Shown piece after piece: positions 47,169 through 48,839 of a stretch of DNA of 52,548 nucleotides. Source of the stretch: Pseudomonadota bacterium (GTDB taxonomy: Bacteria > Pseudomonadota > Gammaproteobacteria > JAADHS01); contig JAKACW010000030.1 of NCBI GenBank assembly GCA_021821045.1, forward strand, positions 1 through 52,548. Direction: 5' to 3'. The notes under the pieces are model-generated. The model was not told the origin of the DNA. It searched no databases and saw only the letters and a list, made by a program, of their open reading frames with translations. Positions within the stretch are counted from its first letter, which is position 1; the number at the start of each line of letters is the position of its first letter. Position numbers and translations under genes: made by a program.

Positions 47169-47245
47169 TGCGGGGTGGAGCAGCCTGGTAGCTCGTCGGG
47201 CTCATAACCCGAAGGTCATCGGTTCAAATCCGGTCCCCGCTACCA
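47169..47245 (+). tRNA. Initiator tRNA-fMet (CAT)
   Basis: 77 bases including encoded CCA. Anticodon CAT lies in TCGGGCTCATAACCCGA, whose three consecutive G-C pairs are an initiator hallmark. Position 1 (T) and position 72 (T) do not pair, the second hallmark. The sequence closely follows E. coli tRNA-fMet. The 3' part serves as the integration site of the element to the right. Confidence 0.97.
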
Positions 47246-48839
47246 TTCTTATATATCCTTTGTCCTTCAACGACTTCCCATCCAACAGTTCAAACAAGCC
47301 CGCGTAGTCGCCCTCGATTTTCGCTCGCAAATGCGTTCCGTCGTCGCTGGGTTCCACGATGATATCGCCGACCAACTTTCGAAGCGCCATGCGTGCCCGC
47401 TCAATGTCGCCCGGCCGCGCAACTTCCAGCTTGTGAATCAACTTGTGGAACCGCTCGGCCACGTTGGGCAACACCTCCGGAATGTCATCACGCGCCGCGG
47501 CTTTGACGTGCTGGGACGCGAGCAGGGCGCGCTTGCGGGCCTCCAACTTCTCAAGCTCCGCCTTGGTCGTCTCTGTGATAATCCCCGCCTTGATCGCGGT
47601 CATGAGGTTTTCAAGCTCGCGCTCCACTTTGGCAAGCTCCGCGCGCGTGGCGCTCTGGTCCGGCTGTTTGGCCGCTCGGGCTTCCCGCAACAGGCGCGCG
47701 GCTTCGTCTCTGAACTCCTCCAGGCACTCAGGCTCGAACAATTCGCAGCGGATCGCCTTTAGCAAGGTGTACTCCAAAAATGGCCGCTTGACGTTCAGCC
47801 GGTTGGCGCACGCGTGCCGCCCGCCGTTTGCGTGGCTTGAGCAGGCGTAACGGTCCACACCATAGATAACCATCTTTCCGCCGCATACGCCGCACCGGAG
47901 AAGGCTCGAGAACAGGTAGCGGGGCGCGCGAGCGATCTTGCTAAGGCCCGTTCGAATGTTGATCGATCGGCGATGCTGCTCTTGCTGGCGGGCCTTCACG
48001 CGGTCCCACAAGGGTTGTGGAACGATGCGAAGGAGGGGAATCTCCGTTATGACCCATTCGCTTTCGGGCAAGTCGCGGCGCTCGCGCTTCTCGGTCGTCG
48101 GGTTCATGACCCACTTCGAGCGGTTCCAAACCTGCCGCCCGATGTAAAGCGGATTGTTCAGGATCCCCGTTCCCTTTTCCTTGTGGCCGTAGATCGCGGA
48201 CGAAAGCCACTTCTTGCCGCGCGGAGCAGGGACGCCCATTTCGTTCAGTTGCGCGGCAATCGCCTTGGTGGATTGACCGTCGGCGAACCGCTCGAAAATC
48301 AAAACGATGGTCTTGGCTTGCTCGGGCACAATCTCCCGCGTGGCGCCGTGCTCGTTTTTGGTTGACCGGTAGCCGTAGGACGCGCCGCCGGCACAAAAGC
48401 CGTTGATCGCCCTTTCACGAAGCCCGCGACGGGTACGAAGGGCAATCTCGCGCCGCGCTTCGGCGTTCATCGCGCCGCGCACGGATAACAACAGGCTGAA
48501 TCCCTCGCGGCGAGTGTCCACACCATCATTGACGGCGACAACGTGGCGTTCGAGGTATTCCAGCCGCTTCACCGCGCGCCATTGCTCCGCCTGATCGCGC
48601 CAAAGGCGGGAGACTTCCTCCGCCAAGATAATGTCGAACTCGTGCGCCTCCGCCGCTGCAAGCAACGCCTGATAGCCCGGCCGGTCAGTCTTGGCTCCCG
48701 ATATGGCTTCATCCGAAAAGCGCCGAACGATCTTCCAGCCTTGGCGCTTGGCGTATTCCTCGCACGTGCGAAACTGGCCGTCGATGGACGTTTCGTTTTG
48801 CTTCTCGGTCGAGTATCGGGCGTAGATGGCGACTTTCAT
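47202..48839 (-). CDS. Large serine recombinase (site-specific integrase)
   Basis: 545 residues from ATG 48839 (GGGGGA nine bases upstream). N-terminal resolvase domain with catalytic S10 (IYARYSTEKQ) and DEAISG...DRPGYQALL, a recombinase domain (about 165-290), a zinc ribbon (CGVCGGKM ... YACSSHANGGRHAC) and a long coiled coil (about 400-460). It inserts and excises DNA at att sites. The last 14 residues, MVAGTGFEPMTFGL, and the stop codon are read from the tRNA-fMet gene on the opposite strand (47202-47245), a known hallmark of integrases next to tRNA att sites. A longer frame upstream to 48971 overlaps another small gene and is not used. Confidence 0.95.
   Translation of the reverse strand: MKVAIYARYSTEKQNETSIDGQFRTCEEYAKRQGWKIVRRFSDEAISGAKTDRPGYQALLAAAEAHEFDIILAEEVSRLWRDQAEQWRAVKRLEYLERHVVAVNDGVDTRREGFSLLLSVRGAMNAEARREIALRTRRGLRERAINGFCAGGASYGYRSTKNEHGATREIVPEQAKTIVLIFERFADGQSTKAIAAQLNEMGVPAPRGKKWLSSAIYGHKEKGTGILNNPLYIGRQVWNRSKWVMNPTTEKRERRDLPESEWVITEIPLLRIVPQPLWDRVKARQQEQHRRSINIRTGLSKIARAPRYLFSSLLRCGVCGGKMVIYGVDRYACSSHANGGRHACANRLNVKRPFLEYTLLKAIRCELFEPECLEEFRDEAARLLREARAAKQPDQSATRAELAKVERELENLMTAIKAGIITETTKAELEKLEARKRALLASQHVKAAARDDIPEVLPNVAERFHKLIHKLEVARPGDIERARMALRKLVGDIIVEPSDDGTHLRAKIEGDYAGLFELLDGKSLKDKGYIRMVAGTGFEPMTFGL

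What the first reader, a model, noticed from the sequence alone, without database searches (positions are those of the whole stretch)
47169..48839. Serine recombinase whose C-terminus and stop codon come from the initiator tRNA gene
The recombinase frame runs across the CCA end and 3' half of tRNA-fMet on the opposite strand, giving VAGTGFEPMTFGL and a TGA at 47202. tRNA-overlapping integrases are usually tyrosine recombinases; a large serine recombinase sitting exactly on an initiator tRNA is less common. Insertion keeps the tRNA sequence intact, so the target must lie in the 3' half or just beyond.
Basis: partly seen in the sequence, partly recalled or inferred. Interest (0 to 1): 0.72.

Follow-up and report, generated by a model that had tools for sequence, protein, structure and literature searches.

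The report
Serine integrase inserted at initiator tRNA end
A small phage-like element has inserted itself at the very end of the bacterium's only initiator-tRNA gene using a serine-type integrase whose last nine amino acids and stop codon are read from the host tRNA gene; the same arrangement recurs in dozens of other bacteria and metagenomic contigs, although serine integrases were stated in 2015 not to be known to use tRNA genes.

Summary
A 545-aa large serine recombinase (LSR, 48839..47205, minus strand) runs 44 nt antisense into tRNA-fMet (47169-47245) and stops at a TGA in the anticodon region. It is a real integration site. The window is a whole contig; contig C45 of the same assembly appears to continue the element and ends it at an exact 14-bp copy of the tRNA 3' end (GGTCCCCGCTACCA), giving a ~9.6-kb element. 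The join is inferred from a 168-bp, 88%-identical overlap. Crossover therefore lies in the last 14 nt of the tRNA, not its 3' half, so GFEPMTFGL and the stop are host DNA. In the circle the frame would end ...TISRPCIQVDLREAA*.

The arrangement is recurrent. 32 LSRs, mostly 33-42% identical to this one, sit on tRNA-fMet; all read through the core and none stops before it. In one relative (G090) the 6.7-kb element lies exactly between the tRNA and rimP-nusA-infB, which is adjacent in nine other genomes. In half of the LSRs the last codons also encode, antisense, a terminator-like hairpin beside the tRNA (16/32 versus 21/475 controls).

Verdict: a new variant of a known kind, LSR islands at tRNA genes. 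A functional tail switch, as in phage Mx8, is untested.

The parts
45915..46667 (+). host pdxJ, part of the left flank (lepA-lepB-rnc-era-recO-pdxJ-acpS by content and order)
   Evidence: Pfam PdxJ 1e-99
46679..47074 (+). host acpS, last host gene before the tRNA
   Evidence: Pfam ACPS 3e-21
47169..47245 (+). tRNA-fMet, the only strong copy found in the assembly; integration target, left intact
   Evidence: ARAGORN, Rfam RF00005 60.9 bits, single strong match in G000
47232..47245 (+). att core GGTCCCCGCTACCA (attL copy); the attR copy is at G000:C45:16776-16789 (minus strand)
   Evidence: exact 14-bp repeat in direct orientation; expected by chance 1.6e-4 in that contig
47202..47231 (-). host-derived 3' end of the recombinase gene: codons for GFEPMTFGL plus the TGA stop, antisense to the tRNA T-arm to anticodon
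47202..48839 (-). large serine recombinase (integrase), 545 aa; residues 520-545 predicted unstructured
   Evidence: Pfam, PHROG integrase 1e-97, fold match to Bxb1, SPbeta and phiC31 integrases
49490..49660 (-). ribbon-helix-helix protein, possible regulator
   Evidence: Pfam RHH_3 2.6e-7
49732..50316 (-). phage tail-completion/neck-like protein (Phage_tail_S)
   Evidence: PHROG 3e-15, Pfam 4e-6
51438..51797 (-). phage head scaffolding-like protein
   Evidence: PHROG 3e-11
52018..52548 (-). C-terminal part of the terminase large subunit, cut by the contig end; N-terminal part on C45
   Evidence: overlap with C45; N-terminal part matches terminase families

Best explanation
The window's right end is the left part of a ~9.6-kb phage-like integrative element with terminase, D5-type primase-helicase, neck- and head-like genes and an LSR. 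SHOWN or strongly supported: the element is joined to the host at the 3' terminus of the only tRNA-fMet gene. INFERRED: the LSR recombined attP with attB (tRNA 3' end) across a shared 14-bp core, GGTCCCCGCTACCA, so the tRNA needs only that core from the element to stay intact. The LSR gene points at the att site and has no stop before it, so its 3' end straddles attP. Integration replaces the circle's tail (...VAGTISRPCIQVDLREAA*) with a tRNA-antisense tail (...VAGTGFEPMTFGL*). Beyond the core the tRNA body is host DNA. The tail is predicted unstructured and is most likely tolerated rather than required. In many relatives the same 3' coding segment also carries an antisense terminator-like hairpin that would replace the tRNA terminator pushed away by the insertion; the window's own element lacks it.
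For: Overlap and domains. LSR fold. Far junction: the window end (52381-52548) overlaps C45 read in reverse (88%, 168 bp, no gaps; same terminase protein), and 4.3 kb further there is an exact direct 14-bp copy of the tRNA end, followed by host GGDEF/EAL and solute-binding genes. Short cores in relatives: L061 13 bp / 10.2 kb, L103 14 bp / 10.0 kb, L176 12 bp / 6.7 kb. Empty sites: Paracoccus replicon L303 against L306/L304/L305 diverges exactly at the first base of the core. For G090, the flank beyond the far core carries rimP-nusA-infB and a bidirectional terminator; that flank lies ~250-325 bp from the core in nine other genomes and ~0.7 kb in a tenth. Recurrence. Terminator-like hairpins: 16/32 versus 21/475, Fisher p 5.5e-12.
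Against: The C100-C45 join rests on an 88%-identical overlap, so it is inferred, perhaps between strain variants. Synteny does not confirm C45's host flank as the natural neighbour of this tRNA. A 17-bp match to the tRNA end also exists at C48:7301 without phage genes. No circular form was observed. The window element has no terminator-like hairpin beside the tRNA.
Confidence: 0.86

Rival explanations
1. Crossover lies deeper in the tRNA (anticodon stem or T-loop), as for many tyrosine integrases, and the element carries its own copy of the tRNA 3' half; the LSR tail would then be element DNA in both states.
For: L066 carries an LSR tail followed by ~50 nt matching the tRNA 3' half and then diverges; a related LSR in G322 runs into a 44-nt 3' half of tRNA-Asn that then diverges.
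Against: In four mapped elements the shared block is only 12-14 bp and the far side lacks the T-arm. A search of G000 for tRNA 3' halves finds only the tRNA itself and one 2-mismatch site in a tRNA cluster. The L066 and G322 cases can be tandem insertions by other elements.
Confidence: 0.08
2. The tail swap is a functional switch: circle-encoded and tRNA-encoded LSR forms differ in stability, activity or direction, as reported for Mx8 integrase. (This adds to the best explanation rather than replacing it.)
For: The frame is open through the core in 32/32 LSRs while other frames have a stop in the last 30 nt in 27/64. At least 4-5 frame switches on the tree never reach the frame that would stop inside the core. 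In Mx8, integration changes the int 3' end and its specificity (PMC6070905).
Against: The integrated tail is only what the tRNA dictates (GFEPxTFxL or just RI, by frame), and predicted circle tails vary from 14 to ~79 aa without conservation. Residues 520-545 are predicted unstructured. A 244-aa fusion at the phiC31 integrase C-terminus is tolerated (PMC5737554). The sequences are related, so the tests are not independent.
Confidence: 0.25
3. The overlap is mere adjacency of a resident recombinase gene and a tRNA, with no integration event.
For: None found.
Against: Far cores, empty sites and displaced host flank; recurrence in divergent LSRs.
Confidence: 0.03

Closest known systems
Large serine integrases of phages (Bxb1, phiC31, SPbeta, TP901-1)
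   Same: Domain order and fold, short att identity block, integrase at the element end
   Different: Target is a tRNA gene; [quoted passage not shown] abscessus Int-S sites are listed separately from the 16 tRNA/tmRNA Int-Y sites (PMC10654092)
Myxococcus phages Mx8/Mx9 (attP inside int)
   Same: Attachment site inside the integrase frame; integration gives int a new 3' end (PMC6070905)
   Different: Islander cites Mx8 in a tyrosine-integrase context; here the replaced tail is ~9 aa and no function has been shown
tRNA-targeting genomic islands of tyrosine integrases (Islander)
   Same: Integration at the tRNA 3' end with the tRNA kept intact; int gene next to the tRNA
   Different: Serine recombinase; identity block 12-14 bp; the tRNA body is host DNA, so no long displaced tRNA fragment marks the far end
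Phage satellites of ~10 kb (PICI/P4-like)
   Same: Size (6.7-10.2 kb), primase-helicase, partial set of packaging/capsid genes
   Different: LSR rather than tyrosine integrase; helper dependence unknown; gene contents differ between members

Membership tests
Large serine recombinase (serine integrase) | N-terminal Resolvase domain, Recombinase domain, zinc ribbon, 400-700 aa | tested here: met
   Pfam 6.7e-32, 4.8e-23, 8.5e-9; 545 aa
Large serine recombinase (serine integrase) | Fold of solved serine integrases | tested here: met
   Foldseek best hits Bxb1 9iu2, SPbeta 9dxh, phiC31 9rah, E <= 1e-14
Large serine recombinase (serine integrase) | Short identity block shared by attL and attR | tested here: met
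   14, 13, 14 and 12 bp in four elements; the window's attR rests on an inferred contig join
Large serine recombinase (serine integrase) | attP x attB recombination activity | not testable with these tools
   needs a bench assay
tRNA-targeting integrative element | Element boundary at a tRNA gene, with an empty site in relatives | tested here: met
   met for relatives G090 and Paracoccus; for the window only the attR candidate, no same-species empty site held
Tyrosine-type tRNA island (Islander signature) | Long displaced tRNA 3' fragment at the far end plus a tyrosine integrase | tested here: not met
   only 14 bp at the far end; the integrase is a serine recombinase
Phage satellite | Lacks own structural set and depends on a helper phage | tested here: inconclusive
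   no portal, major capsid or tail-tube gene among the ORFs scanned, but not every ORF was scanned and helper dependence is not testable here

The most novel reading that the evidence does not exclude
A widespread group of serine integrases has evolved to use initiator-tRNA 3' ends, with attP placed inside the integrase frame so that every integration rewrites the integrase's C-terminus with host tRNA-antisense codons, while the same 3' coding segment encodes, on the other strand, a replacement terminator for the tRNA. The tail swap would act as an integration-state switch.
Probability: 0.25. Interest if true: 0.75.

Novelty: new variant of a known kind. Interest (0 to 1): 0.55.

Why it matters
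The main catalogue of tRNA-targeted islands excluded serine integrases because none were known to use tRNA genes; this group does so repeatedly and at the initiator tRNA, which is present as a single copy in this assembly. Its att sites are short, conserved and widespread in bacteria, which is useful for finding such elements and possibly as integration tools. The overlap of integrase 3' end, att site and a terminator-like hairpin is a compact three-way overlap that makes the question 'does integration change the integrase?' directly testable.

Tried and rejected
AsmA-like gene next to the empty tRNA site of G001, used to find the far junction: only a weak paralog on C43, rejected. C48:7301 17-bp match: no phage genes nearby, not a junction by context. 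G053 two-contig tRNA: both contigs share the first 75 bp, an assembly break with no LSR. Synteny of C45's EAL gene with tRNA-fMet in relatives: none. Far junctions of the Paracoccus elements: not found. Exact 13-mer core in G002: only the tRNA copy. A conserved small partner gene next to the LSR (possible directionality factor): not found across members.

Full report
What is in the sequence. The tRNA is an intact initiator-type tRNA-Met at 47169-47245 (+). A minus-strand frame starts at ATG 48839 (545 aa, P0001) and carries Resolvase, Recombinase and Zn_ribbon_recom domains. It reads antisense into the tRNA from the CCA end...RMVAGTGFEPMTFGL, stop TGA at 47204-47202, next to the anticodon. The tRNA is the only strong tRNA-fMet match in the assembly G000. 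Left of it lie host genes ending in pdxJ and acpS; right of it lie phage-type genes, all on the minus strand, ending in a terminase cut by the contig end.

Far junction. The window is all of contig C100. Its last 168 bases match the start of C45 read in reverse (88%, no gaps, continuing the same terminase protein). C45 continues with the terminase N-terminal part and a D5-type primase-helicase. Then comes an exact direct copy of the last 14 nt of the tRNA, GGTCCCCGCTACCA, followed by ordinary host genes (GGDEF/EAL, solute-binding protein). A 14-mer is expected 1.6e-4 times in that contig; its 13-base part occurs three times in 4.5 Mb: the tRNA, C45, and C48, the last unexplained. The element would be ~9.6 kb. 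The join is inference, because the overlap is not identical; strain mixture is the likely reason.

Recurrence. Of 137 sites examined, 21 lie beside an LSR, and in all 21 the LSR frame crosses the tRNA end. Protein searches add genomes and plasmids, for 32 in all. In 369 genomes of the same class, the six best LSR matches all sit on tRNA-fMet. The LSRs aligned here are 25-42% identical to P0001, most 33-42%. G002, of the same bacterial family, carries an LSR of another branch at the same tRNA. In Paracoccus, Haematobacter and Sphingobium plasmids the tRNA-fMet that follows an rRNA operon is hit, and the neighbouring genes include defence-type genes.

Boundaries at base level. In four elements the block shared by both ends is 14 (window), 13 (L061), 14 (L103) and 12 bp (L176). 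In Paracoccus, occupied replicons and the element-free P. denitrificans replicon match across the rRNA operon and tRNA and part company at the first base of TGGTTGCGGGG. In G090 the flank beyond the far core carries the rimP-nusA-infB genes (read from the translations) behind a bidirectional terminator. In nine other genomes the same flank lies ~250-325 bp from the core, usually with such a terminator, and in a tenth ~0.7 kb away; in G090 6,683 bp separate the two cores. So the crossover lies in the acceptor 3' strand plus CCA and the tRNA body is host DNA.

Consequence for the gene. Beyond the core the integrated gene uses host codons. Circle forms predicted from the mapped ends differ: window ...VAGTISRPCIQVDLREAA*; L061, L103 and L176 have unrelated tails of roughly 22, 37 and 79 aa. 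AlphaFold gives residues 520-545 pLDDT below 50. Relatedness makes the nominal p of 2e-8 too small, but the bias is clear. Whether it reflects a functional tail, as in Mx8, is open.

Terminator-like hairpins. Insertion pushes the tRNA's own terminator away. In the 80 nt after the CCA, a strong single hairpin followed by a T-rich stretch scores at least 16 in 16/32 LSR loci but 21/475 control windows from the same genes (Fisher p 5.5e-12; starts 5-30 nt after the CCA). The LSR's last codons thus often appear to encode a substitute terminator on the opposite strand. This is a prediction; the window's own element lacks it.

Known background. [quoted passage not shown] The TIGER/Islander resource of 2025 (PMC12424338) holds 1.75 million islands and may contain such cases without remark. 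No paper describing serine integrases at tRNA-fMet was found in the held library; subscription papers are mostly missing.

Noticed in passing
L150 (G228), L149 (G322), L151 (G313): Other LSR branches run into or across other tRNAs: tRNA-Asn (L150), a 44-nt tRNA-Asn 3' half that then diverges (L149), and tRNA-Ser (L151).
   Followed up: partly
L173 (Haematobacter pOT1-2) LSR 3' end; L222: The LSR tail holds two in-frame copies of the att core region (...QVKMVAGAGSNLHLLPEQVKMVAGTGFEP...), as if the site had been duplicated.
   Followed up: no
G000:C48:7301-7317: 17-bp match to the tRNA-fMet 3' end upstream of an efflux-type membrane-fusion gene, with no phage genes near; unexplained, may be chance.
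   Followed up: partly
L066: LSR tail plus ~50 nt of the tRNA-fMet 3' half, then unrelated sequence: an attP with longer identity or a tandem insertion.
   Followed up: partly
L103 and L061: ~10-kb elements with LSR and flanking cores: L103 has a prohead protease and AAA ATPase, L061 a DUF5906 helicase and SprT-like gene; different contents on the same integration module.
   Followed up: partly
window 11998-12207, 22546-22608, 23820-24040, 27643-27852: Dispersed short repeats of the window that also occur near the host-side end of C45; looks like a repeat family of this genome.
   Followed up: no
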